Below are positions 1,802 through 18,036 of a stretch of 37,467 nucleotides of DNA, piece after piece. Made by a program: the position numbers and the translations under genes. Source of the DNA: Microcaldota archaeon (GTDB lineage Archaea; Micrarchaeota; Micrarchaeia; Anstonellales; Bilamarchaeaceae); NCBI GenBank assembly GCA_018812625.1, contig JAHJDH010000042.1:1-37467 (forward strand), read 5' to 3'. Position 1 is the first letter of the stretch, and every line of letters starts with the position of its first letter. Below the pieces are notes generated by a model that saw only the letters and a program-made list of their open reading frames with translations, ran no database searches and was not told the origin of the DNA.

Positions 1802-2107
1802 TCAGAGCTTTTCAGAGAGGAATTTGAAATGAGCTCTGGCAGAATCCAGCGCTTTTTTTCCATCATTAGTGATAGTATAATACTTTCTTCTTTCTTTGAA
1901 TTTTGAAGTGATCAAACCTTCGTTTTCAAGCTTGTAGAGCACAACATAATTCATGATCTTATTTGGCTTAAAGGAAAATTTTGCTTCGATCTCTGAATCA
2001 AGCTCATATGCATAAACAGTAGACTTTTCAGTAAGAGAAAGAATATAGAGCCAAAGATTTCCTGAAGTTAAGAGGCGGTTTAGCCTCTTAATTGGCTTTG
2101 AGCTCAT
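1802..2107 (-). CDS. PadR-family winged-helix transcriptional regulator
   Basis: The 101-aa protein has the PadR layout: an opening helix (LWLYILSLTEKS), then YAYELDSEIEAKF, the recognition region ending in VVLYKLENEGLI, and the wing RRKYYTITNDGKKAL. PadR proteins are dimeric repressors whose C-terminal helix dimerises; this copy has the minimal size. Its start codon overlaps the stop of the 1255-aa protein gene by one base (TAATG), so the pair is translationally coupled. That arrangement suggests it regulates this locus, perhaps the 86-bp divergent promoter at 5875-5960, but no operator was identified. Confidence 0.82.
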   Translation of the reverse strand: MSSKPIKRLNRLLTSGNLWLYILSLTEKSTVYAYELDSEIEAKFSFKPNKIMNYVVLYKLENEGLITSKFKERRKYYTITNDGKKALDSARAHFKFLSEKL

Positions 2108-5100
2108 TAGGACCCATCTCTAGGATCCCCAGGTCTAGGACGCATTGAACGTCTGGTTTTACCCAGAACAGTCGGAGTAGGAGTATCAGATCCAGACGCT
2201 TGAATAAGAGCCTCGTGTCCAAGCCCCATATGCTGCCATCTTCGATCAAGAGTTTCACGTGCAACATCAGCAGCGCCAGGCATTCTTGGTCCATGTTGAT
2301 CTGGAGCAAGAGGAGCACCACCGCGAAGAAGGCCAATCTGACTATTGAGCTCAGCACGTGAGCGCTCAAGTGCAGCTCTTTCAGTCTCATCAATAGTCCC
2401 GCCACTTGCTCTTGCAGCCCGATATTCTGTTCTCACCCGATTGATATCAGTAGCTAGTGAAGTATATTGACTAGCGCGTGCATCATCACCAATTGTTCGG
2501 AAATAACGGGCCTGCTGAGCAGCAGCAGCCATAGCAGTTCCATAATCATGAGACCCATGCTCTGATGTAGCTAACACTCCAATCCGAGTCAATGCATCAG
2601 ATTCTGCCCTAGCCTCTGCACTAACCCTAGCATACCTTGTTGCAACCTCAGCAGCAGGAGGCATAACCCGAAGTGAAATATCAACATTATCCCTCAGAGA
2701 ATCTCCTGGAAGTGCTTGTTGAGGATCAACATTGGGCCTGCCACTTGAATCAATTGTAACTCCATAATGTTCAAGAACCCTGTCGTACATGTGAACTGCA
2801 TATTCATTTCCAGCAGTTGTGTGCATACGGCGTGCATCAATAGCACTTTCAATTGCAGTGGCTCGAGCTCGTTCTAAAGCTTGAACATCTGCTTGCTGTG
2901 GAGTGCCTCCATGCTCTTGAGCACTGGCCTCTACTCTTGTCTCAGCAGCAATTACGGCTTCTGCTTGTTGACGAACTCTTTGCCTAGCAGCTTCCTCAGC
3001 AGCAGCAGTTGCCTGAATTTGATCTTCTGATGGATTGTGCATAGATACTGCCATTTCAGCTTGCTCATATAAATGACCAAGTCCCTGTCTTGCAGTATCA
3101 ATAGCTTGCCGATCAGCAGCAGTCTCTGCTTGGTCTGCAGCAACATTAACAAGCCGGGTTTCAACATAAACATTATTCATTTCAAGATATCCATCTCTTG
3201 CAGCAAGTACTCTCTCAGGAGTGTCAGCAGTTCTGATTCGATCTATTTGCTGCATCGTACCAGTAATAGCACGATATTCCATTGCAGCTGAGGATACATC
3301 AGATGAATAAGCAGATGGATCACGACCAATTAAATCTGCCCGGTTATGTTCATAATCACCTAAACAAGAAGTGTCACCAGCATAAGTTGCAAGTGCAGAA
3401 ATATCTGCAGTGGAATATGCGCGAGCCAGTTCAGGACTTTGGGCGAACTGCTCGCTGAATCCTCCAGTTCCATGAGAACCTGCTTCCTGGAGTCTTTCGA
3501 TTGTATGCTCTGGAACAGAGGCCAGTATGGTATTGGCTCGCTCGATAGATTGTTCCATGCGTACTGCTGTTTGTTCAGCAGTAAGAGGAGGAAGACCTCT
3601 ACGAGCATCGTCTAATTGACCTTCCACCATTAGGTGGTCAACAACCCTGTTTCGAAGTGTGGTCCGGTCCATTACTTCAAGATCAGCAGCACTGCTTGTT
3701 GAAATAACAGCAGAAACAGCATCACGATCACCACTCCTAAGATCACTTCCCTCAAGAGCATGCGCAACTACTGTAGCAGGACGTGCTAATGAGACAGGAT
3801 TGCCCTCAGAATCAGTAGTATATTCGCCAGTTATTACATCGCCAGCTCTTAATGCAGCAGTTTCCTGAACTGTACGCTGTCCACCATAGGGACTATCTTC
3901 TGGAGTTAGGCCAGCATATATTGAAACTCCGTGTGCTCCCAATACATCTTGTTGTGCTTCGCTTGCTATAGTAGCACTCTGTGCACGAGCCGTACTTCTA
4001 TCTGTAGCAGTCATATCATCGGTCATATCGTCTGCTCTTAGTGTTTGAATCATTTGCGCTTCACTTCTTGCAGAAGCTAAAACCATAGCCCTTTGCCCGG
4101 CACGATCTGGATCATCCTGAGCAAGATCAGGATTTCCCATGATTGTTTCGTATGTGCCTACGAATTCAGATGCATTCATGCCAATTGCCAAATCACCAGA
4201 GACACCAGGAGCTCCAATGGCCGGACCTGCAATATTATTCCATTCAACTCTTTCAACACTTCCCTCACTCACAACAAGCGGATTTCTTTGTCCAGTTGCT
4301 GCTTCACCTTCGGCTGGTTGAATTGGAGATCCAACGTTGGATCCATCACGATTCGTAATTGTTGCAGTAAATCCACCTTCGGCAGCTTCTGTTATTGTAA
4401 CAATCCCAATTCCCTCAGGATTAGCTGAACCTCTTTGATCTTGAGGTATAACCCCAGCTGCTTGATATTGAATTCCAACTACGATTCCATCCGAATTAAG
4501 TTGTAGGGTCCTTCTATCACCAACTTGTCCCTCGACTTCTCCAGTAACAATTTCCATGGATTCAATGAAAGTATTTCCTCGAGCATCAGGTTCGCTTCGA
4601 GTAACGGCAGTAACAACAACTTCCCTGCCATCAATAACCATCCTGCAGCCGCCAGTCTCTTCATCTATAGTACTAAGAGCAGCTTGCATATCCTCTCCTC
4701 TTCTCTGATCATGATCAACAAATGCCATGTCAAATAGACCCTGATCAGCATGTATGTAAACAAAACCATCAACAAGACGGCCGACGGATGTTTGAGTTGC
4801 AACAAGAAGAGCCATTCTAAGAAGAGTATTCATTCCTCCTGATCCGACTAATTCAGTTCCACGCACTCCCCCTCCACCTGGAAGGAAAGCCATACCCTGA
4901 GAAGTAGCCTGACCAGAGCTAGCACGACTCTCACCACCTTCAACATCACGAATACTGATTCTTGCATTCATCTGTCTTGTGAAAGACTTGGTATCAGTTG
5001 AGGCACGCAAAGAAGCTTTGAACGCCTTTACACCTTTGCTTGCTCTTTTGATTCCACTATAACCGAAAACTCTTTGCTTTGCAGCAGCTTTTTCAGATTT

Positions 5101-5874
5101 TAAAAGAGCGCCTTTTCCTTTTCCTGCTGTTTTTATTGCAGATCCCACAGTAACAAGAGCACTTATTGCAGCCATTCCTGAAAAGGAATATCCTCTTCCC
5201 CGAGCCTGGTATCTGATGTGTTTTCCAACCTTCATTCCGCCAATGTTAAAGCCTGCAAATGGATTTCTTCCAGTTAAAAAAAGTGAACCTGATAAAAGTG
5301 AGAAAATAATAAGCAGAGGAAGGCAAAGTCCAGGAGTCGCAGCCATTGGTGCTGGCGGAGGAGAATATTCAAGCTGATCAATTGCCGGAAAGTATTTCTT
5401 TGGATTTAAAGTAGCTGGAATTGTTGTTGAAGACGCTCCAAGACCAAGCGGAATTTCATCAACAGAAGTTGCAGATGTTTCTATGTTTGAATAATTAAGA
5501 CAGGCTTCAAAACCACAAACTTCAGATGATGGATCGCAAAATGGACAATAGAGAATCTTGAAATTTATACCTCCAGATTTCCTGGAATTAAAATCAAATA
5601 TGGCAGCGCCTTCATCATCAGTATAAATCCTGTAGAGATCGTTAAGTCCAGTTGCATTTGACATTTGAACAAGAAGAACAAAGTCACTAACAGGCTGCCT
5701 TGATGGACTTACAGAAAGATTTTCATAATAGACATAAATTTCAAGAATCCCCGCATCATCATCCATACTAGTTAGGATATTTGCATCAGATGCATTCTCA
5801 AGTTCGTTGCAAGAAATACAATCAGCAGATAACGCGCCGCAAAACAGTAACAAGATGAAGAGTAAACGTCTCAT
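2107..5874 (-). CDS. 1255-aa signal-peptide membrane protein with giant helical cytoplasmic-type domain
   Basis: I do not recognise this family. Residues 1-17 form a signal peptide (RRLLFILLLFCGALSA). Residues 18-180 form a small exported domain with Cys pairs (CISC, CPFC) and a Pro-rich end. Residues 182-202 are a strong transmembrane segment, followed by a basic Gly/Arg/Lys-rich stretch and a weaker hydrophobic segment at 231-248. The remaining 1000 residues are hydrophilic and rich in Ala, Arg, Glu and Gln, with long predicted helices and many A-x-x-A-E/R patterns. With an outside N-terminus, the large part would be cytoplasmic if there is one crossing. It is divergent from the six-paralogue operon and coupled to the PadR gene. 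A consensus TATA element lies 26 nt upstream of its ATG. A structural or scaffold role for the envelope locus is inference. Confidence 0.75.
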   Translation of the reverse strand: MRRLLFILLLFCGALSADCISCNELENASDANILTSMDDDAGILEIYVYYENLSVSPSRQPVSDFVLLVQMSNATGLNDLYRIYTDDEGAAIFDFNSRKSGGINFKILYCPFCDPSSEVCGFEACLNYSNIETSATSVDEIPLGLGASSTTIPATLNPKKYFPAIDQLEYSPPPAPMAATPGLCLPLLIIFSLLSGSLFLTGRNPFAGFNIGGMKVGKHIRYQARGRGYSFSGMAAISALVTVGSAIKTAGKGKGALLKSEKAAAKQRVFGYSGIKRASKGVKAFKASLRASTDTKSFTRQMNARISIRDVEGGESRASSGQATSQGMAFLPGGGGVRGTELVGSGGMNTLLRMALLVATQTSVGRLVDGFVYIHADQGLFDMAFVDHDQRRGEDMQAALSTIDEETGGCRMVIDGREVVVTAVTRSEPDARGNTFIESMEIVTGEVEGQVGDRRTLQLNSDGIVVGIQYQAAGVIPQDQRGSANPEGIGIVTITEAAEGGFTATITNRDGSNVGSPIQPAEGEAATGQRNPLVVSEGSVERVEWNNIAGPAIGAPGVSGDLAIGMNASEFVGTYETIMGNPDLAQDDPDRAGQRAMVLASARSEAQMIQTLRADDMTDDMTATDRSTARAQSATIASEAQQDVLGAHGVSIYAGLTPEDSPYGGQRTVQETAALRAGDVITGEYTTDSEGNPVSLARPATVVAHALEGSDLRSGDRDAVSAVISTSSAADLEVMDRTTLRNRVVDHLMVEGQLDDARRGLPPLTAEQTAVRMEQSIERANTILASVPEHTIERLQEAGSHGTGGFSEQFAQSPELARAYSTADISALATYAGDTSCLGDYEHNRADLIGRDPSAYSSDVSSAAMEYRAITGTMQQIDRIRTADTPERVLAARDGYLEMNNVYVETRLVNVAADQAETAADRQAIDTARQGLGHLYEQAEMAVSMHNPSEDQIQATAAAEEAARQRVRQQAEAVIAAETRVEASAQEHGGTPQQADVQALERARATAIESAIDARRMHTTAGNEYAVHMYDRVLEHYGVTIDSSGRPNVDPQQALPGDSLRDNVDISLRVMPPAAEVATRYARVSAEARAESDALTRIGVLATSEHGSHDYGTAMAAAAQQARYFRTIGDDARASQYTSLATDINRVRTEYRAARASGGTIDETERAALERSRAELNSQIGLLRGGAPLAPDQHGPRMPGAADVARETLDRRWQHMGLGHEALIQASGSDTPTPTVLGKTRRSMRPRPGDPRDGS

Positions 5875-5960: not shown

Positions 5961-7163
5961 ATGCAGTTTTGGAGACTTGGAGTATTATTATTTTTGATGG
6001 CTCCTACTGTTTTTGCTATAGGGGCAATAGATCTTACAGTTGCAGTACCGGGAGTTGCAATGATAGTCATTGCAGTTCTTGTAATATCTAGTATGATGGC
6101 AACTGCAACTTCAAATCCGAGATTAACAGCATGGTCAAAGAGGGAGATTCAGGAATTCATAGTAGGAATTCTTCTTGTTGCAATAGTAATTGCGTTCTTC
6201 ACAGGCGGAGTCCCTGGAGTTAGCATTGCACTGACTGGCAATGCAGATTATTCATCAGCATCCCAGACAATTCTTGATGGATGGATAGCTGGATATAGCA
6301 GCGCATTTGAATACATCATAATTGCAGCAAGCAGAATAAGGGCAGCTGCAACATACGCCCCATACCTCAACATCCCGCTGTGGTATGTTTCAGTTAATTA
6401 TTCAACAAACCCACTTGCAGGAATTGGCATATTATTAGGTAGCTTAAATATGGCCACTTCGGCACTTACTAATGCGATATTCATTGCAGAAGGAATAAGG
6501 ATGATGATTGGGTTTATGAAAGCAACTGGGCCAACAGTGCTTCTTCCGATTGCATTTATTGCAAGAATCATTCCATTTACAAGAAAAACCGGAAACACAC
6601 TTCTTGCGATTGTAATAGGTGGAATGGTATTCCTTCCATTTGGAGTTATCTTCGCAGATGTTCTCAATAGTTCTATAGATATGCCACACCCGAGTATGGA
6701 TACAGATAATTTAACTGCAAAACCGTGGGCAATGACAGTGTTTGAACCCATGTGCGAAACAAAAGTAATCAGACTATTGCTCTCACTAACAGATCCATTA
6801 TTTGCACTTGTTGTATGTCTTCCACTTTACCTCATTCCAGTTGCAGGACCAGGATTGTTTGCTGCATGTTTCCCAGTTGTACAGAATGTTGTATATCCAA
6901 TAATTAACATCATCTTCCAATTGACCGGGGCAGCTTTGATGCTTACGTGGGAAGGAATTTTCGGAACGCCCATAGGATCAGGGGTTTATGTTGATGATGT
7001 TTGGGGAGAGCTGTACCCATTCTTAACAGCTGTAAATAATCTCGTATTAGTTGGATACCTGGATTTCGTATTCATTGGAATAGTGACAATGGCAGGAGCG
7101 CGAAGCATTTCGTCAGTACTTGGAGGAGAATGGTACATGGCAGGAGTACAGAGGTTAATATGA
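5961..7163 (+). CDS. Polytopic membrane protein, paralogue 1 of 6
   Basis: This 400-aa protein has a signal-like first segment (residues 1-19) and several transmembrane helices. It shows the three signatures shared by the six tandem proteins: (a) near residues 51-65, after the first helix, a polar linker with NPRLTAWSKREIQ before the second helix; (b) at 195-230 a motif LPIAFIARIIPFTRKTG followed by a hydrophobic stretch ending in P; (c) a C-terminus with SVLGGEWYMAGVQRLI. It is the first gene of the operon and overlaps the next by ATGA. Function is unknown; a VirB6/TrbL/CedA-like channel subunit is possible because of topology and the TR motif after a helix, but this is weak. Confidence 0.72.
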   Translation: MQFWRLGVLLFLMAPTVFAIGAIDLTVAVPGVAMIVIAVLVISSMMATATSNPRLTAWSKREIQEFIVGILLVAIVIAFFTGGVPGVSIALTGNADYSSASQTILDGWIAGYSSAFEYIIIAASRIRAAATYAPYLNIPLWYVSVNYSTNPLAGIGILLGSLNMATSALTNAIFIAEGIRMMIGFMKATGPTVLLPIAFIARIIPFTRKTGNTLLAIVIGGMVFLPFGVIFADVLNSSIDMPHPSMDTDNLTAKPWAMTVFEPMCETKVIRLLLSLTDPLFALVVCLPLYLIPVAGPGLFAACFPVVQNVVYPIINIIFQLTGAALMLTWEGIFGTPIGSGVYVDDVWGELYPFLTAVNNLVLVGYLDFVFIGIVTMAGARSISSVLGGEWYMAGVQRLI

Positions 7164-8149
7164 GACTCGCATTGTTCTTGCTACTGATGGTTGCGATTTC
7201 ATTCCAAGCATCTTGCCTAGATTTTGGCGATGCTGAGCACACCATACTTTCTGAACAAGGAACAAATATTATCATAGTTTTCATGATTACGGCACTGTTG
7301 ATCGCATCAGCATACATGATTGGAAAAACAATCAACAAAGTAGATTTTGTCGTTTTTGCAAAAGACGAGGCATATCACCTCGGATTCTCATTAGTTGCGC
7401 TCCTCTCAATTGGAGGAGTACTTATATTCTCATGCTATGCCATGGATATGTTCTATGAATCATTATTTGAAAATTTGAGCAGCGAACTTAGTGCAGGTTG
7501 CTACAGTTCATCCGGACAGGGAATGAATGTTGTTTCAAGCTGCTACATGAATAAAATGAAAAAATTCGCAGCAGGTATGTCCGAAAGTTACATTGACCAT
7601 TATATCGATGAGCTTATGGAATCCACATTCACATATAATATCCAGATTCCTCTGCTTACTTCATACTCTTCAACTGCCGGAGCTTTCAGAAAAGTGATAT
7701 CAAATCAATATGATATAATTAACAATTCATTCCTAATCCCAGCATTGATGAGCATAAGCATGCAGAAACTTGCACTTGATTTCATCAATGAAAATGTACT
7801 TCGCTGGATTTTACCTGTTGCATTTTTACTTAGAGTATTTATCCCAACTCGTCCAATGGGCAATGTATTGATTGCTCTGGTAATCGGATTATATGTTATT
7901 GTCCCATTTATGTATGTGTTCAATTATGCAATGAATGATGCCGTCTCTGGAGACTGTCATTTATTTTCAGATGCTATATGCGACTATGTAGTTGATAGTT
8001 ACGATTGTGCAAACACTTGCACTAATTCAGATGGATTTTGGAATGTTGGAAGGCTGATCCCGCAGGCATTCTTCCTGCCAAATTTAACAATTGTAATTCT
8101 AGTGACATTCATGACTTCAATAAATAAGGCTTTGAGGGTGATCGGATGA
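7160..8149 (+). CDS. Polytopic membrane protein, paralogue 2 of 6
   Basis: The 329-aa product starts at ATG 7160, which overlaps the upstream stop (ATGA) and opens a clear signal peptide (RLALFLLLMVAISFQA); an upstream in-frame ATG at 7130 would put a polar extension before it. Signature (a) reads VDFVVFAKDEAYHLG, signature (b) begins near residue 217 with LPVAFLLRVFIPTRPMGNVL, and signature (c) is degenerate (SINKALRVIG), so this copy lacks the GGE/D tail. Two Cys-containing loops, the last just before the final helix (CDYVVDSYDCANTC), probably face outside. It is coupled to both neighbours by 4-nt overlaps. Confidence 0.72.
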   Translation: MRLALFLLLMVAISFQASCLDFGDAEHTILSEQGTNIIIVFMITALLIASAYMIGKTINKVDFVVFAKDEAYHLGFSLVALLSIGGVLIFSCYAMDMFYESLFENLSSELSAGCYSSSGQGMNVVSSCYMNKMKKFAAGMSESYIDHYIDELMESTFTYNIQIPLLTSYSSTAGAFRKVISNQYDIINNSFLIPALMSISMQKLALDFINENVLRWILPVAFLLRVFIPTRPMGNVLIALVIGLYVIVPFMYVFNYAMNDAVSGDCHLFSDAICDYVVDSYDCANTCTNSDGFWNVGRLIPQAFFLPNLTIVILVTFMTSINKALRVIG

Positions 8150-10188
8150 AAAAATTACTATTGATCTTGCTTTTGATCGGACTTTCGTTCGCAACAACAG
8201 TAACCGAAGGAAAATTTGAATCAGCAACTTCATCATCGCCTCTTGAGCTTGTCAAAGACTGGAAAATTCTTTCAGTTGCAGCGATTATGATATCTATTGT
8301 TCTTGTTGCAATTGCATATACAATTGGAATAGGACTTGAATTGCCAGAGATAAAGGCGTGGGCTGGAAATGAGCTGGTGCAAATTGTTGCAAATGCCATA
8401 ATTGTAATAATGTTAATTGTCAGCATTGCATTCATCGATGTCTTGATTGTTGGAATAGTCATGAGCAGTAACATAAACATTGCAGATTGTAGCAATCCAT
8501 CAACAAGCTGCCTTCAGGCAGTAACAAAAGAATATTTAGCAGAACATATTTCAGCTGCAGAGGATGATGCAAAAAATGTTGTCAAAAACAACGTAGATGC
8601 TGCTGGAATGGCAAGCAGAAGATTGGGATTATACTGTCTTACTATATACTGTGCTCAAATTGGATTGACAACAACAATAGCAGGCAACTATGCAATAGAT
8701 GCTGACTACTATGCAATAATATTTGAATATTATACTAATCTGCTCGCATCAATGAACTCGCAGCTTTTCTTCGTAGAGCAAATTTCATTTAACATGGGCC
8801 CCATAATTCTTGCTGCAGGCATAATTGCAAGAGCATTCTTCTTTACGCGTAAACTTGGAGGACTGCTAATAGCAATAGCACTCGGAGTGATGTTCTTCTA
8901 CCCAGGAATGTATATTTTTGACTGGATTACTCTTGAAACAACAGTTACAGGAGATAAGGGACTTGAAAGTGAAGAACCTCATTGTCCTGGAGAATGCAGT
9001 CTGGCAGCTCCACTAGCATATATTGCTGGCGAAGAAAATGGCGGACTTGCTGGTATGAAAGAAGTATATGGAGCATTTTCTGTTGCAGATCGAGGAAAGG
9101 GTGCGCAAATAATAGACGGATCGCTTTCAAGTGCAACTGGATCAAATGGAACTGCAAATGGAAAAACAGTTATATCCTGTAATGCGGGAGCATATGCAAA
9201 TTGTCCACAGTTATGCAGAGAACTCCCATACCCTGCCAGTGTTTCTGCTTGCATCAACACTTCTGCTGGAACTGAAATGGCTTGCCAACAACTTCCAGTA
9301 GAATGCAAAGTCATTCGTTATATTGCAGATTCACAAATAAACTGGGAGGAATACAATAAATGCCCAGCATCATGCAAAGTGACGCCACCACTAAATAGCA
9401 ACTGTGGAATTGATCCGCTTTGTGTTCAGTCAAGTCCTGATTGTAGATTAACATACAATGATGATCTGGATTGGAGACCACACAAAACAGCTAAAAGCTT
9501 GGAGATAGAATTAAGATGCGCACTAGCTAGCCATTGTAATGCCAGCACAGTTGCAACAGAATCATGCGTATTTGTACTTCCAAGAACTGGAAATTGCAAT
9601 GATCTTTGTATTGATTGTCCTGCCCACTGTAGAATAACTGGAGCAAATCCAGCTAACATGCAGCCAGATTGTAAGGAGGGAGATGCGATAAAGCCTGCAT
9701 GCGTTTCATGTGTTGAAAGCTGCAAGATAACAATTGAAAACCTAGGGAATCTACCTGAAGACTGTGGCGCGTGTCCTGATGAAAAAAGAGTGCTCACACC
9801 ATCACTGCCAAACGCATACATAACAGGTGATTGTGATCCAAGTGTGTGCCCATTTGATGGAGACCACAGGATGACAATTCCAAGAAATACTTGCGAAACT
9901 TGCCTCTTTACTGAAGAATCATACATGTATGATCCACCAATAAATGCAAGGTGTACAGACATCTGCGCTCCATCAAACAACGTTCCAGTAAAAGAACCAG
10001 GGTCGTACACAAAAATAGGAGAAGAGGGATTAGTCGGAAAAGAAGAGATAAAGAATATTGCAAAATTAATATTGCCAGCATATCTACTGCCTCTCTTCAA
10101 CATAGTCGCAACACTGGTGTTCATAAAAGGACTTTCTGGAATTCTTGGAGGAGACATTGACATCCCAGGAATATCAAAGGTGTTCTGA
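8146..10188 (+). CDS. Polytopic membrane protein, paralogue 3 of 6, with Cys-rich loop
   Basis: The 680-aa protein has a signal peptide (KKLLLILLLIGLSFA), signature (a) LPEIKAWAGNELVQI, signature (b) near residue 217 (GIIARAFFFTRKLGG) and signature (c) GILGGDIDIPGISKVF. Unlike the other copies it carries an insertion of about 330 residues (278-606) between the TR-motif helix pair and the last helix, with about 32 cysteines. Units of the form C-P-x-x-C-K/R-h-T/x recur (CPGECSL, CPQLCRE, CPASCKVT, CPAHCRIT, CVESCKIT, with variants PVECKVI and SPDCRLT). The loop most likely faces outside and is disulfide-rich, or binds metal. The next ATG overlaps the stop by one base (TGATG). Confidence 0.75.
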   Translation: MKKLLLILLLIGLSFATTVTEGKFESATSSSPLELVKDWKILSVAAIMISIVLVAIAYTIGIGLELPEIKAWAGNELVQIVANAIIVIMLIVSIAFIDVLIVGIVMSSNINIADCSNPSTSCLQAVTKEYLAEHISAAEDDAKNVVKNNVDAAGMASRRLGLYCLTIYCAQIGLTTTIAGNYAIDADYYAIIFEYYTNLLASMNSQLFFVEQISFNMGPIILAAGIIARAFFFTRKLGGLLIAIALGVMFFYPGMYIFDWITLETTVTGDKGLESEEPHCPGECSLAAPLAYIAGEENGGLAGMKEVYGAFSVADRGKGAQIIDGSLSSATGSNGTANGKTVISCNAGAYANCPQLCRELPYPASVSACINTSAGTEMACQQLPVECKVIRYIADSQINWEEYNKCPASCKVTPPLNSNCGIDPLCVQSSPDCRLTYNDDLDWRPHKTAKSLEIELRCALASHCNASTVATESCVFVLPRTGNCNDLCIDCPAHCRITGANPANMQPDCKEGDAIKPACVSCVESCKITIENLGNLPEDCGACPDEKRVLTPSLPNAYITGDCDPSVCPFDGDHRMTIPRNTCETCLFTEESYMYDPPINARCTDICAPSNNVPVKEPGSYTKIGEEGLVGKEEIKNIAKLILPAYLLPLFNIVATLVFIKGLSGILGGDIDIPGISKVF

Positions 10189-11177
10189 TGAAAAAACTGT
10201 TAATATTCTTGCTTTTAGTTCCGATGGCCTTTGCGGCATGGCAAAGTGTTGCAGGAGTAGCCATAATGATATCTCTTGGAATAGTTGCAGCAATTTACAT
10301 GGTCGGAAAAGGCTTTGGAATAAATGAACTTCAAATGATGGGAAAAGAAGAGATGTTCCAGCTTATTGCAACAGGAATATTAGTAGTTGTTTTAGTAAGC
10401 TCTGATGGGCTTTTGAATGCGATTTCAACAAGTGATGCATTTAGTGAAGGACAGCCAACAATGCAGACAAATGCAATGGCAATGCTAGACAATACCATAG
10501 GAGAAATGGGAGGCATTCTTTCAACAATTCAAAATAATGATAGAAAGAATCAGGTAGAAGGATCAAAATCATCACAATGCAGTATTATGGGAACAGGTTA
10601 CAGTGTTAGCGGATGCGGGGGCTACAGCATGCTTGCTAGCCCAATGTCTATGGCTGGTGGTATTGTAGGCTTCTCAATTGGAGAACTTAGTGCAGTACAC
10701 AGATTAATACAAATTTCAAATGAATATGCATTTTCTCTTCTTCTGCCTCTTGGGATTGTACTTAGAACAATAAAACTCACAAGGGGCGCTGGAGGACTTC
10801 TTATTGCACTTGGAATTTCGCTTCATATAATGCTTCCTGCAGGAATAATATTTTCTGAAATGCTTGCATCATCATTTGCTGCATCTCCAGAAAGCGCTGC
10901 TTATACGGGTGCTGCAGAGGATATTGATTGGGACGATTATGAGTGCAATGCAGGAGATACAATGCCAGTGACTGCCGATAAAACAGAAAACGAAGAGAAT
11001 GTGATAGACGTATTCAATATAATGAAATCCAATATTAGAAAGTACATGTTTCAGGCAATGATCCGTGGAACTCTTGGTCCTGTCCTTGCACTTTTATTGA
11101 TGGCAGGAAGCATAAAGGCAATATCATCTGCAGCAGGTTCAGAAGTAGATGTTAGTGCACTATCGAGGTTTGTATAA
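10188..11177 (+). CDS. Polytopic membrane protein, paralogue 4 of 6
   Basis: The 329-aa protein has a short signal-like segment (KKLLIFLLLVPMAFA). Signature (a) is INELQMMGKEEMFQLI, signature (b) lies near residue 185 (LPLGIVLRTIKLTRGAGG followed by LLIALGIS), and the tail is AISSAAGSEVDVSALSRFV. The loop between the helices after signature (a) is Gly/Ser/Met-rich and contains three Cys. Spacing to both neighbours is a one-base overlap, implying strong translational coupling and stoichiometric synthesis. No enzyme motif was seen. Confidence 0.72.
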   Translation: MKKLLIFLLLVPMAFAAWQSVAGVAIMISLGIVAAIYMVGKGFGINELQMMGKEEMFQLIATGILVVVLVSSDGLLNAISTSDAFSEGQPTMQTNAMAMLDNTIGEMGGILSTIQNNDRKNQVEGSKSSQCSIMGTGYSVSGCGGYSMLASPMSMAGGIVGFSIGELSAVHRLIQISNEYAFSLLLPLGIVLRTIKLTRGAGGLLIALGISLHIMLPAGIIFSEMLASSFAASPESAAYTGAAEDIDWDDYECNAGDTMPVTADKTENEENVIDVFNIMKSNIRKYMFQAMIRGTLGPVLALLLMAGSIKAISSAAGSEVDVSALSRFV

Positions 11178-12244
11178 TGAGCGCAGAAATATGTGGCCCT
11201 GGATTTGATAGTTTCTTCAGCAGCACAATCATACCACTAGTTGCATATGCCACAATAGTAACTTCTATTTTGATTGCACTTTCATTCATGGTTGGACGGG
11301 CAACTGCCAATCCAAAATTAACGCTTTGGTCAAAAACAGAAGTAGTTCAACTGGTAATATCAGTATTCTCAGTATTCACACTTTCAATTATTATCAATTC
11401 ATTCTGCATTGTGGATATAGGAGAGGTTGCAGTAATGTTTGGCCTCCCAAGCCCTGGCTCCAATAGCATCTTTGGCGCTGCGCAGGATTATCTTCATGAA
11501 TCAACGCTTTACGCGCACAATGCAATGACAGTTGTGAGATACCATCTTGAGGCATATACAGTAATGGCTTACCTTAATGCATTTGCATGCGATTTCAAAA
11601 CCGGTTCAATTGGATGGGGATGCCTGTTTGGATATTCTGGAGAAAACATGCAACCATTTGGAGGACACGGCGCTAGCATGGCTGCCTTGAACATATTTTT
11701 CAACGGATCAATAATGGCATTTTTCACTTCACTTAATTTCCTGTTTATTCTATTGTTTGTTTACAAGGGATTCGTATTCTTGTTCCTTCCAATGGGGGTA
11801 TTCCTTCGAGCAATGCCATACATGCGTTCGTTTGGATCACTATTAATAGCCCTTGCCATGTCTTTTCTGATAGTCTACCCTCTCATGCTTTCAGTATTCT
11901 GGCTGATGAGAAATATTGTTGTAGATGCATCAAATGGTTTTGTACCCCCAAGCAGTCCTGCATTAACAAATTACATGGATGAAGATGTATTCCCAGATGA
12001 GGAGGGGGCAGGTTCAGCAGGACAAAGCGCAGCAGCAGCATTTGTAGGAGATAGTGCTGTCTCGGATACATATTTCCCAAATGACCCCAATATCGTAGGA
12101 GCAATAATGTTTGCAGCAAACGCATTTGTAGCAGCAGTATTTCTGCCAACAACTGCACTCATAGCTGCAATTGCAAGTGTATCTTATCTTGCAAGACTTT
12201 ACGGAGAGGAAATCAACCTCACAAGTATAACACGATTAATGTAA
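11177..12244 (+). CDS. Polytopic membrane protein, paralogue 5 of 6
   Basis: The 355-aa protein lacks an obvious cleavable signal peptide; its first helix starts near residue 18. Signature (a) is NPKLTLWSKTEVVQLV, nearly the same as in paralogue 1, suggesting these two are close. Signature (b) near residue 203 reads FLPMGVFLRAMPYMRSFG, with the T of the TR pair replaced by M. The tail is ARLYGEEINLTSITRLM. A polar loop with Asp/Glu/Ser and a Pro-rich start precedes the last helix. The start overlaps the previous stop as TAATG. Confidence 0.72.
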   Translation: MSAEICGPGFDSFFSSTIIPLVAYATIVTSILIALSFMVGRATANPKLTLWSKTEVVQLVISVFSVFTLSIIINSFCIVDIGEVAVMFGLPSPGSNSIFGAAQDYLHESTLYAHNAMTVVRYHLEAYTVMAYLNAFACDFKTGSIGWGCLFGYSGENMQPFGGHGASMAALNIFFNGSIMAFFTSLNFLFILLFVYKGFVFLFLPMGVFLRAMPYMRSFGSLLIALAMSFLIVYPLMLSVFWLMRNIVVDASNGFVPPSSPALTNYMDEDVFPDEEGAGSAGQSAAAAFVGDSAVSDTYFPNDPNIVGAIMFAANAFVAAVFLPTTALIAAIASVSYLARLYGEEINLTSITRLM

Positions 12245-12254
12245 TGGTGAAAAC

Positions 12255-13280
12255 ATGGAACTTCCAATACTCGCGGCATTCAACTTTTATGGCCAATGGG
12301 GCATTGGATGGCAAGGAATTGCCATTCTAGCAGTAATGACTGCTGTAATCATCAATGCCACATTTATGATGATTGGAAGGGCATTTTCAATCAAGGAACT
12401 CGAGACATTTGCAAGATCCGAAATTCTTCAGGCAGTTGCAACTGCATTCATGGCCATATTCTTAGTCACTATGGTTGAGAGTGCAATGGGCATTTCAAGA
12501 GAATTCATACATGGTGATCTAACCTGCGGAGGAGAATCAATACATATCGGAACTACTAATGAGACAACAATGAATGAAGCATACTCAGCAATCCGCTGCA
12601 GATTACAGCATAGGGCATCAGATGTTGCAGCAATTCAGGACGAGGTTACAAGTGGAGCAGATACATATTTCAAGTATTTTGGACTGAACTTAGTGGTAAC
12701 CCTATTCGGACTCCAGGTTTTCAAAGGAGATTGGGTGGAAGCACTTTACGAAAGTGTAGAGCAGGACAGAATTACAAATAATCTCGCAACAGTCCTTCTA
12801 ATTGGACTAAATGCACAATCAGCACTACTTGAATATCTTAGAATGAATATGCTTCATGTGTTTATCCCAGTTGGAATTTTACTTCGAAGCTTATACTTTA
12901 CCAGGTCAGTTGGAGCACTGTTTATCTCACTGGGAATTGGAATGTATTTCTTATTCCCAATTTTCTTTGTGTTGCTTGACCCAGGATTTACTGCATCTCC
13001 GCTTCCAGCAACCTTGGATGTGCCAATTCCACAACCATATTGCTATGCTACTATGAGTAGCACTGTTTCAGTTATGAAATCACTTGAGACTGCCGGGGTT
13101 GGAAGCACATCGAGTCTTGCTGTTGCAGGGGTAAAAGAAAACTTATCAAAATCATATGTTACTCTCATGCTCCATCCGCTTATTGCATTATTCCTAACTC
13201 TTACTTTTGTCAAATACATGATGACAATTTTAGGAGGAGATACTTACGAACTTACTAAAATGGTCTCCAAAGTGATTTAG
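12255..13280 (+). CDS. Polytopic membrane protein, paralogue 6 of 6
   Basis: The 341-aa protein has no signal peptide. Signature (a) is SIKELETFARSEILQAVA, signature (b) near residue 202 is FIPVGILLRSLYFTRSVGALF, and the tail is TILGGDTYELTKMVSKVI. It is the only paralogue separated from its upstream neighbour, by a 10-nt gap containing the ribosome binding site GGTGA. The next gene starts on the base after its stop codon. A Cys in the first loop and one in the later loop could form disulfides outside. Confidence 0.72.
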   Translation: MELPILAAFNFYGQWGIGWQGIAILAVMTAVIINATFMMIGRAFSIKELETFARSEILQAVATAFMAIFLVTMVESAMGISREFIHGDLTCGGESIHIGTTNETTMNEAYSAIRCRLQHRASDVAAIQDEVTSGADTYFKYFGLNLVVTLFGLQVFKGDWVEALYESVEQDRITNNLATVLLIGLNAQSALLEYLRMNMLHVFIPVGILLRSLYFTRSVGALFISLGIGMYFLFPIFFVLLDPGFTASPLPATLDVPIPQPYCYATMSSTVSVMKSLETAGVGSTSSLAVAGVKENLSKSYVTLMLHPLIALFLTLTFVKYMMTILGGDTYELTKMVSKVI

Positions 13281-16200
13281 ATGAAAAAATGGATATTTGT
13301 ATTAGCCCTGGTCATTTTTGCTTTTGGTTGCATTAAACCAGTTCAGCAGATAGGCTGCTGTTTAAGAGAAAATGCCACTAGTGAAACTAATCCCGGATGT
13401 GTATTGTATAATACAACAACATACCAGGAAATGCCGCAATATTTCGATAAAACGGATTCCTGCAATGCAACAGCAGGCAACTGCAATGTCAGCTTTACCA
13501 TTCCAAATGGTACAAGTGATTATATAGAATACCATTTAGTTCCGATTTGTACTGAAGACCAGCTAGTTCCTTGTATTGAACCGAATTGTACTGCTATGGT
13601 TTGTGGAGACTTTAAGTTCAAACCAAAAATTGCACCAGGATTCTCAAGCCCGGAAGAATCTTCAGGCGATGTTCCTCCAGATGAGGAAGAGAGTGGTGCG
13701 ATGAATTTCTATAAAGCGCAATGCAGGTTCCTCAAAATGGATGCAACATTAAGACAGGTAATGAAAAATTCAAAATCAAGCATAAATGTCTTTAGAGTTG
13801 GTGTTGGAGGAAGCTTTGATGAATTTGAACAATACAGATATTATTTCCCGATGTCAGACCAGTTCTGCACCTCAAATCCAAAAAGGATGCCAGGTGATGA
13901 GAGAGTAGATAGATACATCAATTATCTTGGATGGGATTCCGGAGCAGGAAAAGTAACTGATGCAGATCCAACATTAATCGAAGAAAATTGCTTTGATGAA
14001 GGAGATGTTCCAGAACCATTTACATTTGAGGAAAGCGCTGCAGTCAAATCATCGTCAATATTCTACACAGTTAATTATGCCCCAGTTACACCAGACCTTC
14101 ACAACTATAAATTCGCTCACTATGGAAGATTAGATTATTGGGCACAATTTGTTAATGAGGATGGAGGATATTACAGATACACATCTCCGTTTATAGATCA
14201 GTTTAGCATTTACAAAAAAATTGACTCGGAATACTATAGAAAATATCTTTCCATTGCACACGCTGATCGGATATATGGAAAAACTGCAGAAGATACAACA
14301 AGAGCCCCATTTGAATGCGATATCGAAGGATCTGACTGCTATTCTGGAATGTGCAATATTGAAACATACAACAGGGGAGTACTTCTTAAAACCGGATTTG
14401 GAACAGGTTCAGAGCCTGAAGTAGTTGCTGATTGTAATAAGGGAGCAGATGCGACAGGACATAATGTTGTTTATTGCGCCCCAACTCAATCAGTTACAAC
14501 AGCTGATGGAGTAAAACCAGCATTTGACTATGCAACAGCAAACGTAGTAACAGCCCAGATTGCGAGCCTATACAATTCAGTATATGATTATAATTCATTA
14601 TCACAGGATGATGAGCTGCTTGATCCAATATGGGATCAGTTTCAGGGATATCTATCATATATGTATGACGGTGGAGGAAAGTCAAGGACCATCACAAATG
14701 TTCCATCCTCAATTAGTTCTTATGATACACTAAGGAAGTATTGTACAGAGGATTTCCCAACAGTTGAATCAAAGGAAAATGATAGCATCATATGTACGCA
14801 TGTTGAGCAATCAGGAAACCCGCCTCCAGCAGCCGGAGTAACATTCTTTGGACTTGTTGATGATTCTGAAGTAAAATACGGAGGTTCAACGATCATAGGA
14901 TATGGAATTGCATCGGATGATACTGAGTTTGAAAACATGCTTGTAGTTAAAAACTGCGAAATGGAAGAAGGAGAAGACTATGAAGTTGTAACTATTGACG
15001 GAATAAATGATCCAGATTTTTGGGCACTTAGAGATGCATTCCGACCATATTTCAGAGACAGATTAAAAGGCATAACCAAAAATGGATTTAACGATGGATG
15101 CGGCGGATTGATAAATGGACTAGACCCTGTAATTTCAGCAATGCCATGGGTACTCTCATATGAAAAGGGCCTTCGTGATAACGGATTTATTGGAGATGAC
15201 TATTACCACCCCATATCCAACCACGTTAATTCAGTAACCGCCCAGGAACTTCGAGAAAGAAATATTTATGACGAACCTATGCTAGCACCATATAGTAATC
15301 CAGGAACAAGTAGCTGTGAACTTCGAAGAAGCACATATTGGTGGTTCTGGAGCAATGCTAATTTCTACTATAACCTCGCAATAGCAAAGAAATTCTACCT
15401 ATTCAAATACAAACCAGGAAACATGACCATAGGAAAGTGCGTAGTAGATGATGGCACCTATCTTCCAAAAGTCAAAACATTTGGCTGGTGTGATTCATGC
15501 ACAACCTCAACCCTAGCTTTCCAAAGCATTGCTGCACATGGCAGGGTATACATGCCTGCATACAGTGCAAAGATCGAACAAACAACAGGAACGAATTATG
15601 AGGGAATCTGTCAAAGTGCTTATAATTCAGAATGGGAACTTTGGACTGGATTTGACATATCAGATACTGTTTCGTGCTTCCATCCAAGAATCACAGATAT
15701 TGGAGAATACAAGGATTCAATTGGATTTATGGGGTCCCCAAGAACATCCCCAGAAGCAAGTGTAATGAAGGAGAGAATGGGGGATTACATGAAATCAGGT
15801 ATTCTGCCAGTAATTGATATGAGCGATGATAGCAACTGGATTATTGACAATCCAGACTCACAAAATGAGACAAGTTTCCTTGGCTGGACAATCAATTATG
15901 GATCTCCGGATAATTTTGTGGAGTATGACTTTGAGCGATTACTTGGCAATATGGGAGCGTCTGTTGTGATTGTTGATCATGTAAGCAGTAAGGCAGAAGC
16001 TGAAGCAAATGTGGATCTTATTATTGACAGAGCAGCTATTGTCAGAGAAAATTGTTATGGCTGTTTGACAGCATTCCATGTTGATAGTCCAGATAGCAAC
16101 AGCAGCTTTGAAGACATAATTACGCCTATTATGAGCCATCCAAGCGGGGAGTACAACATTGAACTAATAACTTTCGATTATTCGCCCTCAGAACATATAC

Positions 16201-17099
16201 AATCATTAGGTGGAGGGGATTGGGTTATTGAAAATATTGCAAGCTATGGGAGAGTCTCACTTCGAACGCCAAGCCCTGGCCGAGGATCTCCGGTTATGGT
16301 AGTTGGATTCAATGTCCAGGATAATGATGGAGTTTGGGACGAGACAAATTATGATGAAATATTTGGAGCAATTGTAACAAACCAGGATGAACTGATTAAT
16401 TCTGGAGTAGTTGGCATAATATATTCACCAGCAAGAGGCTCAGGCGTAGACAACAGCGGACTTGTAGATGTTTCTAGCGGAGTTGGATTAAAATCAGAAA
16501 AGTTCTGTGCATTCCAAAAAGCCATGCAGAGAATGTCGGAGTCTCCTCCAACTGCAATGTTTAGTAAAGCGCTGGTAGTGCAAAACGCAACTTGTGAGAT
16601 ATGCACCAGCCTGGATAAACTGCCAGGTGGAAACTGCGAACCAGAATGTGATAATGGAGTTAAATGTTTGCTTCCAGAGGGAGCTGTTGGGGATATAGAT
16701 ACAGATTACAAATGTCCAGTCAATACAGTTGTTGAGGATTGTGATCTTTGCAAAGATCTTTCTGGAAACTGGGAATGTCTTATTAAATACACTAATGGGA
16801 CACAAGAGACAATCAGTGGCAGTATGAGCGAGCTGGAAACTGACCTATACATGGATGTCATTGGATCCCTTGAAAAACCAATAAAATGCTGTCTTGAAGA
16901 TTCAAGCGGAAGAAGATATTCGTATTTCAAACAATCATCTTCAAGTGCAATCAACAAGCCAGTTGTATTTCCAAGAAGTGGAGACCCCAATGTAGATTGT
17001 GGTATGGGAGACTCTGCTGCAATAGGAGAGCTCACTAGTTTCTGTAACCTAAACGAGCTGCCGCTAAAGGACTATGATCTTGAATGTGAGGTAAGCTGA
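13281..17099 (+). CDS. 1272-aa exported, Cys-rich protein (putative lipoprotein)
   Basis: I do not recognise the family. The N-terminus KKWIFVLALVIFAFGC looks like a lipoprotein signal with Cys17, so membrane anchoring by that Cys is possible. There is no other obvious transmembrane segment, so the rest is probably outside. Cysteines are spread along the whole length. Residues about 834-1075 alternate hydrophobic strands ending in small polar motifs (ILPVIDMSDD, ASVVIVDHV, ITFDYSP, VMVVGFNV, VVGIIYSPARG), reminiscent of an alpha/beta barrel such as a glycosidase-like fold, but I see no catalytic pair I can defend. The C-terminal part is Cys-dense (CEICTSLDKLPGGNCEPEC). It directly follows paralogue 6, so it is probably the surface partner of the six membrane proteins. 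Confidence 0.7.
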   Translation: MKKWIFVLALVIFAFGCIKPVQQIGCCLRENATSETNPGCVLYNTTTYQEMPQYFDKTDSCNATAGNCNVSFTIPNGTSDYIEYHLVPICTEDQLVPCIEPNCTAMVCGDFKFKPKIAPGFSSPEESSGDVPPDEEESGAMNFYKAQCRFLKMDATLRQVMKNSKSSINVFRVGVGGSFDEFEQYRYYFPMSDQFCTSNPKRMPGDERVDRYINYLGWDSGAGKVTDADPTLIEENCFDEGDVPEPFTFEESAAVKSSSIFYTVNYAPVTPDLHNYKFAHYGRLDYWAQFVNEDGGYYRYTSPFIDQFSIYKKIDSEYYRKYLSIAHADRIYGKTAEDTTRAPFECDIEGSDCYSGMCNIETYNRGVLLKTGFGTGSEPEVVADCNKGADATGHNVVYCAPTQSVTTADGVKPAFDYATANVVTAQIASLYNSVYDYNSLSQDDELLDPIWDQFQGYLSYMYDGGGKSRTITNVPSSISSYDTLRKYCTEDFPTVESKENDSIICTHVEQSGNPPPAAGVTFFGLVDDSEVKYGGSTIIGYGIASDDTEFENMLVVKNCEMEEGEDYEVVTIDGINDPDFWALRDAFRPYFRDRLKGITKNGFNDGCGGLINGLDPVISAMPWVLSYEKGLRDNGFIGDDYYHPISNHVNSVTAQELRERNIYDEPMLAPYSNPGTSSCELRRSTYWWFWSNANFYYNLAIAKKFYLFKYKPGNMTIGKCVVDDGTYLPKVKTFGWCDSCTTSTLAFQSIAAHGRVYMPAYSAKIEQTTGTNYEGICQSAYNSEWELWTGFDISDTVSCFHPRITDIGEYKDSIGFMGSPRTSPEASVMKERMGDYMKSGILPVIDMSDDSNWIIDNPDSQNETSFLGWTINYGSPDNFVEYDFERLLGNMGASVVIVDHVSSKAEAEANVDLIIDRAAIVRENCYGCLTAFHVDSPDSNSSFEDIITPIMSHPSGEYNIELITFDYSPSEHIQSLGGGDWVIENIASYGRVSLRTPSPGRGSPVMVVGFNVQDNDGVWDETNYDEIFGAIVTNQDELINSGVVGIIYSPARGSGVDNSGLVDVSSGVGLKSEKFCAFQKAMQRMSESPPTAMFSKALVVQNATCEICTSLDKLPGGNCEPECDNGVKCLLPEGAVGDIDTDYKCPVNTVVEDCDLCKDLSGNWECLIKYTNGTQETISGSMSELETDLYMDVIGSLEKPIKCCLEDSSGRRYSYFKQSSSSAINKPVVFPRSGDPNVDCGMGDSAAIGELTSFCNLNELPLKDYDLECEVS

Positions 17100-17101
17100 T
17101 A

Positions 17102-17431
17102 ATGGGATTGCTGGATATTTTTAAGAGCCAAAAATCATCATCTGGCCGCAAAGGACAAAAGCAAAAATGTCCCAATTGCGGTGAAACAGTAGACCTTAGC
17201 ATGGAACGATGCCCAAAATGCGGGGTTCGAATCAAGAGCATGTTCAGACGCAAGTGCCCAAAATGCAAAAATCTTATAGAGCTTGATGCTAAAAAATGCA
17301 ACAAGTGCGGATATAGCTTCGAAGCGGAACTTCAGCGTGCGAAAAAGACTTATTATGTATGCCCAATATGTGGATATAAGATGGAGGCAATGTTAACACG
17401 TTGTCCTGCATGCAATAGACGCTTTATGTGA
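17102..17431 (+). CDS. Triple zinc-ribbon protein
   Basis: The 109-aa protein has six CxxC knuckles in order (CPNC, CPKC, CPKC, CNKC, CPIC, CPAC), enough for three zinc ribbons, after a short polar N-terminus that begins with the hydrophobic MGLLDIF. No enzymatic domain is present. It starts 2 nt after the 1272-aa protein gene and overlaps the next gene, so it belongs to the same operon and is probably a cytoplasmic adaptor or nucleic-acid/protein-binding factor; that role is inference. Confidence 0.72.
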   Translation: MGLLDIFKSQKSSSGRKGQKQKCPNCGETVDLSMERCPKCGVRIKSMFRRKCPKCKNLIELDAKKCNKCGYSFEAELQRAKKTYYVCPICGYKMEAMLTRCPACNRRFM

Positions 17432-17436
17432 GAACA

Positions 17437-18036
17437 ATGGAATCATTCAAAGTCACAGAAGAGAAAAAAACAGGTGAAGACGGACCAAAGGTTAAATTCA
17501 CCCATCTTCTTGATGAGGAAAAAGTTGAAATAGAAAGACTAACAGAAGAAGATGTTGAAGAATCTGTTAAGGTCATGAGAAAATGCGCATTTGATGTGAC
17601 TGATACAGAAGTAAGCAATATTATCAAATATGGAAAAAGTTTTGGTGCAACTGTTAACAGAATGATTATTGGGGTTGGTCTTGCCTGGCCAGCCAGATTT
17701 GATCTCGAAGAAAAGAACATTACCGGCGGAGAGGCAAATGCTCTTTATATGGAAGACCCCGCAGTGCTTCTTGCATATGAAGGCAGGGGAATCAGAAGAA
17801 TACTTTTAGAAGAGCGAGAAAAAGAAGTTGGACGATCATCTTACAGTTATTCGATAGGATACCTCTATGAGGATATACCAAAGGGGAATATAGGAGATTA
17901 TATTACTGAAGCAGGTTCGCAATTAGAAAAGCTCTACTTATCAGAAGGTTATGAATTCTTCAGAACAGAAAAAGGAATTTTGGCATTTAAGAAAATAGAG
18001 AAAAGAGAAGATAGTGCAAAGTTCTCAATAAACTAG
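17437..18036 (+). CDS. GNAT-like acetyltransferase-family protein
   Basis: The about 199-aa protein shows a GNAT-like acetyl-CoA loop (YEGRGIRRILLEER) after a beta strand, and a C-terminal segment with the family pattern LYLSEGYEFFRTEKG. The N-terminal 35 residues are charged. ATG 17437 is preferred; a GTG at 17428 overlaps the previous stop. Sequence support is moderate and the substrate unknown. It is the last gene of the operon starting at 5961 and converges on the LarE-like gene with a 4-nt overlap. Confidence 0.55.
   Translation: MESFKVTEEKKTGEDGPKVKFTHLLDEEKVEIERLTEEDVEESVKVMRKCAFDVTDTEVSNIIKYGKSFGATVNRMIIGVGLAWPARFDLEEKNITGGEANALYMEDPAVLLAYEGRGIRRILLEEREKEVGRSSYSYSIGYLYEDIPKGNIGDYITEAGSQLEKLYLSEGYEFFRTEKGILAFKKIEKREDSAKFSIN

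What the first reader, a model, noticed from the sequence alone, without database searches (positions are those of the whole stretch)
5961..13280. Six tandem paralogous polytopic membrane proteins in one translationally coupled operon
All six products share three signatures: a polar linker h-x-x-W/F-x-K-x-E-h-x-Q after the first helix, a motif h-P-h-G-h-h-h-R-x-h-x-h-T-R-x-x-G followed by a hydrophobic stretch ending in P, and a C-terminus G-G-E/D-x-h-x-h-x-x-h-x-R/K-h-h (missing in paralogue 2). Gene overlaps are ATGA, TAATG or TGATG except for one 10-nt gap. This is a local expansion, comparable in layout to the tandem VirB6 genes of Rickettsiales secretion systems and to VirB6/TrbL/CedA-like channel proteins of archaea, but relatedness to these is unproven. 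Together with two giant exported proteins this may be an undescribed envelope machine.
Basis: partly seen in the sequence, partly recalled or inferred. Interest (0 to 1): 0.87.

Follow-up and report, generated by a model that had tools for sequence, protein, structure and literature searches.

The report
Ordered six-gene VirB6-like array in Micrarchaeota
Six related membrane-protein genes sit in a row here, and almost every genome checked across this phylum of tiny archaea carries relatives of them, in the same order wherever a full set was examined, together with relatives of the pilin and motor of bacterial DNA- and protein-transfer machines, so they probably build a previously undescribed six-part version of such a machine.

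Summary
Six tandem, translationally coupled genes (5961-13280) encode true paralogues, beyond what hydrophobicity explains. It is not a local expansion. The contig is Micrarchaeota, and the family occurs in 134 of 146 genomes of the phylum. In every complete multi-gene array examined (44) there are exactly six genes. Positions 1-6 match each other in order across three array types, so this is an ancient ordered hexad. The window's genome has two hexads plus a lone copy.

In other families the hexad lies directly downstream of VirB2/TrbC-type pilin genes and upstream of a CedB/VirB4-like ATPase. Pilin modules are fused to hexad members. Pilin, ATPase and membrane family are absent from the same few genomes.

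Best reading: the membrane platform of a domesticated type-IV-secretion/Ced-like machine, with six different VirB6-like subunits where known bacterial rings use one subunit five times. Direct VirB6 homology rests on context and one in-register motif; Pfam, profile-profile and fold searches were not significant. No held paper found describes it.

The parts
5961..7163 (+). m1, VirB6-like hexad position 1 (400 aa, about 7 hydrophobic segments)
   Evidence: position-1 counterparts
7160..8149 (+). m2, hexad position 2 (329 aa from the ATGA start at 7160; longer start at 7130; lacks the C-terminal GGE/D tail)
   Evidence: orthology
8146..10188 (+). m3, hexad position 3 (680 aa; 'extended' form with a Cys-rich insert of about 378 aa holding 32 Cys before the last helix)
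   Evidence: starred position-3 group
10188..11177 (+). m4, hexad position 4 (329 aa)
   Evidence: in-order assignment in held-out arrays
11177..12244 (+). m5, hexad position 5 (355 aa)
   Evidence: starred position-5 group
12255..13280 (+). m6, hexad position 6 (341 aa); AlphaFold model pLDDT 76, all-helical
13281..17099 (+). G7, giant exported lipoprotein-like protein (1272 aa), abutting m6; conserved directly downstream of window-type (type A) hexads across the order
2107..5874 (-). GL, divergently transcribed giant membrane-anchored protein (1255 aa); conserved beside type A hexads in the window's family, with a weaker match in one other family
17102..18036 (+). zinc-ribbon protein (109 aa) and 202-aa protein continuing the operon; genes of similar size follow G7 in several relatives (matched by size only)

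Best explanation
The six genes encode the polytopic membrane platform of a chromosomal ('domesticated') type-IV-secretion-like or Ced/Ted-like machine that is a core feature of Micrarchaeota. Shown: six paralogues in fixed order, conserved across the phylum and copied as a block; linkage (in relatives) and co-occurrence with a CedB/VirB4-family ATPase and VirB2/TrbC-type pilins; fusion of pilin modules to hexad members. Inferred: the six occupy distinct places in one hetero-oligomeric complex that does the job of the VirB6 ring of bacteria (or CedA/TedA of other archaea). That complex would recruit pilins with ATPase energy and provide the channel or pilus base through which DNA or protein passes between cells. 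The giant exported proteins G7 and GL would be surface parts specific to the window-type hexad. The substrate and direction of transport are unknown.
For: Phylum-wide presence: 58/59 relatives, 134/146 genomes. Exactly six genes in 40 called arrays; four further arrays, not used to build the position profiles, resolve to exactly six in order 1-6 when read by frame. Position identity is the best of 720 pairings in A-B, A-C and B-C comparisons. The tree needs 8 label changes against a shuffled mean of 53. Operon in other families: VirB2-like pilin(s), hexad, 2-TM proteins, ATPase, 2-TM/CxxC protein, ~260-aa protein, ~800-aa 2-TM protein. ATPase: CedD 1e-19, VirB4 CD1110 1e-19, CedB 1e-18; the ATPase beside the lone copy hits CedB 1e-25. 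Pilin: 24/26 members hit PF18895 (best 1e-6) and 14/26 PF04956 VirB2 (best 3e-8). Pilin-to-hexad fusions. Shared absences. Minimal pilin, single VirB6-like and ATPase locus in G115. Motif P-x10-T-R in register with the VirB6 core.
Against: No Pfam/NCBIfam hit to TrbL/VirB6 for any member tested. Profile-profile comparison with plasmid VirB6 is not significant (prob. 0.1-4%). Foldseek of the m6 model finds nothing significant; R388 VirB6 (7o3v_G) is only rank 8 at E 1.6. The pilin model, a bare helical hairpin, has no significant structural match either. In the window's own genome neither hexad is beside the orthologous ATPase (L078), and only one weak free-standing pilin was found; the link is taken from relatives. 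VirB8, VirB10, relaxase and coupling protein were not identified. Shared absences fall in few families, so they are few independent events.
Confidence: 0.77

Rival explanations
1. The six form separate homo-oligomers (six alternative VirB6-like channels for different substrates or partners), not one mixed complex.
For: Known VirB6 and DotA are homopentamers (PMC12624023, PMC12857230), and six genes do not fit five places. Rickettsiales keep several VirB6 paralogues (PMC7648143). Large position-specific inserts (pilin modules in B1/B2, Cys-rich insert in position 3) could reflect separate tasks.
Against: Invariant number and order with block duplication is what co-assembly of all six predicts; independent channels should be lost or multiplied singly.
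Confidence: 0.3
2. An envelope complex unrelated by descent to T4SS (for example an adhesion or S-layer assembly or lipid/solute system) that merely uses a HerA-type ATPase and two-helix pilin-like proteins.
For: No significant sequence or structural match of the six to VirB6; the giant partners G7 and GL have no known domains.
Against: ATPase closest to the CedB/CedD/VirB4 branch, pilins matching T4SS pilin families, pilin-membrane protein fusion resembling the CedA/CedA1 homology (PMC9905601), VirB6 core motif in register.
Confidence: 0.15
3. A local lineage-specific expansion without functional coupling.
For: Tandem layout and about 20-25% identity among the six.
Against: Positional orthology across families and across three array types, phylum-wide occurrence, always six.
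Confidence: 0.02

Closest known systems
Ced (Sulfolobales) and Ted (Thermoproteales) DNA-exchange systems: CedA/CedE/TedA, CedA1/TedC pilin, CedB/CedD/TedB ATPase (PMC9905601, PMC11868833)
   Same: Chromosomal; VirB6-like polytopic protein with VirB2-like pilin and HerA/VirB4-like ATPase; homology between pilin and the membrane protein's N-terminus has its parallel here in pilin modules fused to hexad proteins; a paralogous CedA (CedE) exists in Saccharolobus
   Different: One or two CedA paralogues against an ordered set of six (or twelve plus one) here; additional conserved operon genes and giant exported proteins; DNA transfer untested here
Bacterial VirB6/TrbL/DotA ring of T4SS (R388 TrwI)
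   Same: Polytopic proteins encoded beside VirB2 pilin and VirB4 ATPase; motif P-x10-T-R in register
   Different: Bacterial ring is five copies of one protein (PMC12624023, PMC12857230); no significant profile or fold match; six different genes here
VirB6 paralogues of Rickettsiales (four in Anaplasma phagocytophilum, PMC7648143)
   Same: Duplicated VirB6 genes, some with very large extensions, in reduced genomes of host-dependent cells
   Different: Number and extensions differ; here six with block duplication, archaeal, with CedB-like ATPase and no recognised VirB8-VirB11
Patescibacteria T4SS (PMC12102498)
   Same: Widespread domesticated T4SS in a phylum of ultra-small symbionts; VirB2-like pilins near VirB4; virB6 reported essential for epibiont growth
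   Different: Bacterial MPF-FATA origin; no ordered six-gene VirB6 set is reported in the passages read
VirB4-type ATPase domains of giant proteins in Nanohaloarchaeota (PMC10266531)
   Same: DPANN T4SS-like ATPase linked with giant surface proteins
   Different: ATPase domain is part of the giant protein; no VirB6-like hexad described

Membership tests
VirB6/TrbL (PF04610) | Match to the family HMM | tested here: not met
   No match in the own genome or five relatives; none of 28 members hit it at E<=10
VirB6/TrbL (PF04610) | Profile-profile similarity to plasmid VirB6 proteins | tested here: inconclusive
   Probability 0.1-4%, controls 0.1-0.2%; the best local alignment in several runs is the core motif GPLFI...TRxF onto LPxGxxxRxxxxTR
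VirB6/TrbL (PF04610) | Fold like R388 TrwI/VirB6 | tested here: inconclusive
   7o3v_G rank 8, E 1.6, TM 0.26-0.31, not significant
VirB6/TrbL (PF04610) | Encoded beside VirB4-type ATPase and VirB2-type pilin | tested here: met
   Type C loci L150, L152, L153, L158 and L199-L202; not adjacent in the window's own genome
VirB6/TrbL (PF04610) | Ring oligomer forming pilus base or channel | not testable with these tools
   No multimer prediction or experiment available
Ced/Ted-like system | CedB/TedB-like HerA-VirB4 family ATPase | tested here: met
   NCBIfam CedB, CedD and VirB4 CD1110 are the top hits, all below the full-length equivalog cut-offs
Ced/Ted-like system | VirB2/CedA1-like pilin | tested here: met
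   24/26 hit PF18895 and 14/26 PF04956, best 3e-8; helical hairpin model, but no significant PDB fold match
Ced/Ted-like system | Homology of pilin with the N-terminus of the VirB6-like protein | tested here: inconclusive
   Pilin modules are fused N-terminally in B2 of seven genomes and B1 of two, but most hexad members show only weak, non-significant similarity there
Ced/Ted-like system | DNA import or exchange between cells, UV-inducible | not testable with these tools
   Needs experiment
Complete bacterial T4SS | VirB8, VirB10, VirD4 and relaxase components | not tested
   Neighbouring 2-TM and ~800-aa proteins have no family hits; remote homologues of VirB3/VirB8 were not sought

The most novel reading that the evidence does not exclude
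Micrarchaeota possess a core, phylum-wide T4SS/Ced-like machine whose VirB6-type platform is a hetero-oligomer of six different, position-specific subunits, where known bacterial systems use one repeated subunit. In the window's order the whole platform was duplicated to give two machines, one of them carrying giant surface proteins.
Probability: 0.45. Interest if true: 0.9.

Novelty: new variant of a known kind. Interest (0 to 1): 0.77.

Why it matters
If correct, nearly every member of a large phylum of ultra-small archaea carries a trans-envelope transfer machine that searches of the held open-access literature did not turn up. That would supply a concrete candidate for how these archaea exchange DNA or proteins with partners or hosts, an open question for DPANN biology. 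An ordered set of six VirB6-like subunits would also be a natural case of a symmetric ring turned into an asymmetric one, and would bear on the unexplained five-versus-six symmetry mismatch at the base of bacterial T4SS.

Tried and rejected
Direct annotation: Pfam, NCBIfam and PADLOC scans of the six and the giants gave nothing usable. PDB sequence search with the 13-member profile: no relative. The 13-member alignment was too divergent for the search for related loci, so the linked ATPase was used to name the phylum. PF04610 HMM over six genomes: none. Profile-profile against eight plasmid VirB6 proteins: not significant, though the same motif keeps being chosen. Sulfolobus conjugative plasmids pHVE14 and pNOB8 were fetched as a source of CedA-like proteins; their CedA-like protein has a P-x11-R segment resembling the motif by eye, but with so few diverse sequences no profile test was made. 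The window's own DUF87 ATPase (23618-25102) was considered as the motor and set aside: it is closest to the HerA repair helicase. 'Local expansion' was rejected by positional orthology. My simple gene caller missed members in L150, L172, L199 and L162; reading by frame showed six in each.

Full report
OBSERVATION. They are coupled by ATGA, ATGA, TGATG and TAATG junctions and one 10-nt gap; m2 most likely starts at 7160, and the giant gene G7 abuts m6. The products are homologous beyond hydrophobicity. phmmer scores between different members reach 55.6 bits, against a maximum of 14.4 bits in about 1,460 comparisons with hydropathy-preserving shuffles; m1 and m6 are linked only through the others. 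Residues invariant in the six-way alignment are one Glu after the first helix, R-x5-R-x2-G, a later Pro and one C-terminal Gly.

ORIGIN. The window is contig C26 of a 1.27-Mb genome. Named relatives of the linked ATPase are almost all Candidatus Micrarchaeota, including the chromosome of Ca. Fermentimicrarchaeum limneticum Sv326. None of the six, nor the two giants, has a Pfam or NCBIfam assignment.

NOT LOCAL. The same genome holds a second six-gene array on contig C12 and a lone copy on C23 that sits beside a VirB4/CedB-like ATPase. A 13-member profile finds the family in 58 of 59 relatives and 134 of 146 genomes of the phylum.

AN ORDERED HEXAD. Arrays from many genomes fall into three types. 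Type A is the window's type, followed by G7. Type B is the C12 type. Type C is joined to the ATPase operon. In 40 called arrays there are exactly six members; two of these (L080 and L152) appear to be the same array reached by two routes. The exceptions are two lone copies, one array cut by a contig end, and four arrays that my ORF caller misread; read frame by frame these four have six as well. Profiles built for each position of each type score the same position in the other types best overall: identity is the best of 720 pairings in each of the three comparisons (from the matrix). Position 4 is the weakest in that matrix. The four arrays not used in building the profiles are assigned 1 to 6 strictly in order. 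A tree of 80 members needs 8 changes of position label (least possible 6; shuffled mean 53); positions 3, 5 and 6 are single, well-supported groups, position 2 a single weakly supported one, and positions 1 and 4 are not resolved as single groups but not ruled out. The six-gene set is therefore ancient and was copied as a block. Whether the A/B duplication came before or after separation from type C is not resolved.

LINK TO A T4SS-LIKE MACHINE. In type C genomes the hexad follows small signal-peptide proteins with two further helices and precedes two 2-TM proteins, a ~510-aa ATPase, a 2-TM/CxxC protein, a ~260-aa protein and a ~800-aa 2-TM protein. In the window's order the orthologous ATPase operon exists without an adjacent hexad (L078). 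The ATPase's nearest models are CedD, VirB4 CD1110 and CedB at 1e-19 to 1e-18, and CedB 1e-25 for the ATPase beside the lone copy; all are below full-length equivalog cut-offs. Of 26 small proteins, 24 hit the T4SS pilin family PF18895 and 14 hit TrbC/VirB2 PF04956 (best 3e-8). The pilin family is found in 91 of 97 genomes; the six without it also lack the membrane family, and lack the ATPase or have only a generic HerA-level match. Those genomes belong to few families, so the nominal probability (1e-9) overstates independence. Pilin modules are fused to the N-terminus of the second type B gene in seven genomes, including the window's own, and of the first in two others. This resembles the CedA/CedA1 homology reported in PMC9905601. 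One genome (G115) has a minimal pilin, single VirB6-like gene and ATPase, like Ted.

IS IT VIRB6? Direct evidence is thin. There is no TrbL hit. Profile-profile comparison with eight plasmid VirB6 proteins is not significant, but several runs align the VirB6 core motif GPLFI...TR onto the family's LPxGxxxRxxxxTR with the same P-x10-T-R spacing. That spacing occurs in 128 of 242 members, in 3 of the 8 plasmid VirB6 proteins and in 0 of 62 unrelated polytopic proteins. The m6 AlphaFold model (pLDDT 76, pTM 0.69) has no significant PDB match; R388 VirB6 is rank 8 at E 1.6. The pilin model is a helical hairpin without a significant match. I therefore say that the array works like a VirB6/CedA platform, and do not file it as a member of PF04610.

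MECHANISM. Shown: co-inheritance, order, and linkage to pilin and ATPase. Inferred: the six are distinct subunits of one membrane platform that, with the ATPase and pilins, forms a channel or pilus base for transfer of DNA or protein between cells. Known VirB6 and DotA rings are pentamers of a single protein (PMC12624023, PMC12857230), so six obligatory genes would be a new design. The rival that the six act as separate channels is not excluded. G7 directly follows nearly all type A arrays, across the order (one, L196, lacked it in the stretch read, and in L177 a 204-aa ORF intervenes); GL lies beside type A arrays in the window's family, with a weaker match in one other family. The position-3 protein m3 carries a Cys-rich insert (32 Cys in about 378 residues), comparable to extended VirB6 proteins.

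LITERATURE. Searches of the open-access library for T4SS, VirB4, VirB6 or CedB with Micrarchaeota or DPANN found no description of such a system. Subscription papers are mostly not held, so novelty is limited to that library. The closest precedents are Ced/Ted, with CedE as a CedA paralogue, Rickettsiales VirB6 paralogues, the Patescibacteria T4SS and VirB4-type giant proteins of Nanohaloarchaeota.

VERDICT. It is a new variant of a known kind.

Noticed in passing
L009:11457-13013 (own genome C12): Type B hexad gene 2 carries two pilin-like modules fused N-terminally to the VirB6-like domain; pilin modules seen in this gene in seven genomes, and as a single module in gene 1 of two others.
   Followed up: yes
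L011:9962-14173 (own genome C23): A lone VirB6-like gene followed by a 2-TM protein, a second CedB/VirB4-like ATPase and a 236-aa protein: possibly an independent minimal Ced-like system beside the hexads.
   Followed up: partly
L150:15674-21832, L153:14204-20398, L161:7249-13359, L162:15855-21812: In some type C genomes the ATPase operon ends with a ~2000-aa exported protein family, with no detectable sequence similarity to the window's giants G7 and GL.
   Followed up: partly
window 8932-10065 (m3 insert): Hydrophilic insert of about 378 aa with 32 Cys in hexad position 3; position-3 proteins of other type A arrays are mostly 650-1143 aa.
   Followed up: partly
window 17102-18036: Zinc-ribbon protein and ~200-aa protein directly after G7; genes of similar size follow G7 in L168, L170, L174 and L179, possibly further operon members.
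   Followed up: no
window 18797-20482: Membrane-anchored protein with a Lon-type (S16) proteolytic domain and no ATPase domain detected.
   Followed up: no
window 23618-25102: HerA-type (DUF87) ATPase, distinct from the array-linked ATPase; best models are the HerA repair helicase, with CedD at 2e-30.
   Followed up: partly
L010:1446-5110 (own genome C12, downstream of hexad B): Run of genes mostly starting with a single hydrophobic segment (pilin- or adhesin-like) a few kb downstream of the second hexad; not examined.
   Followed up: no
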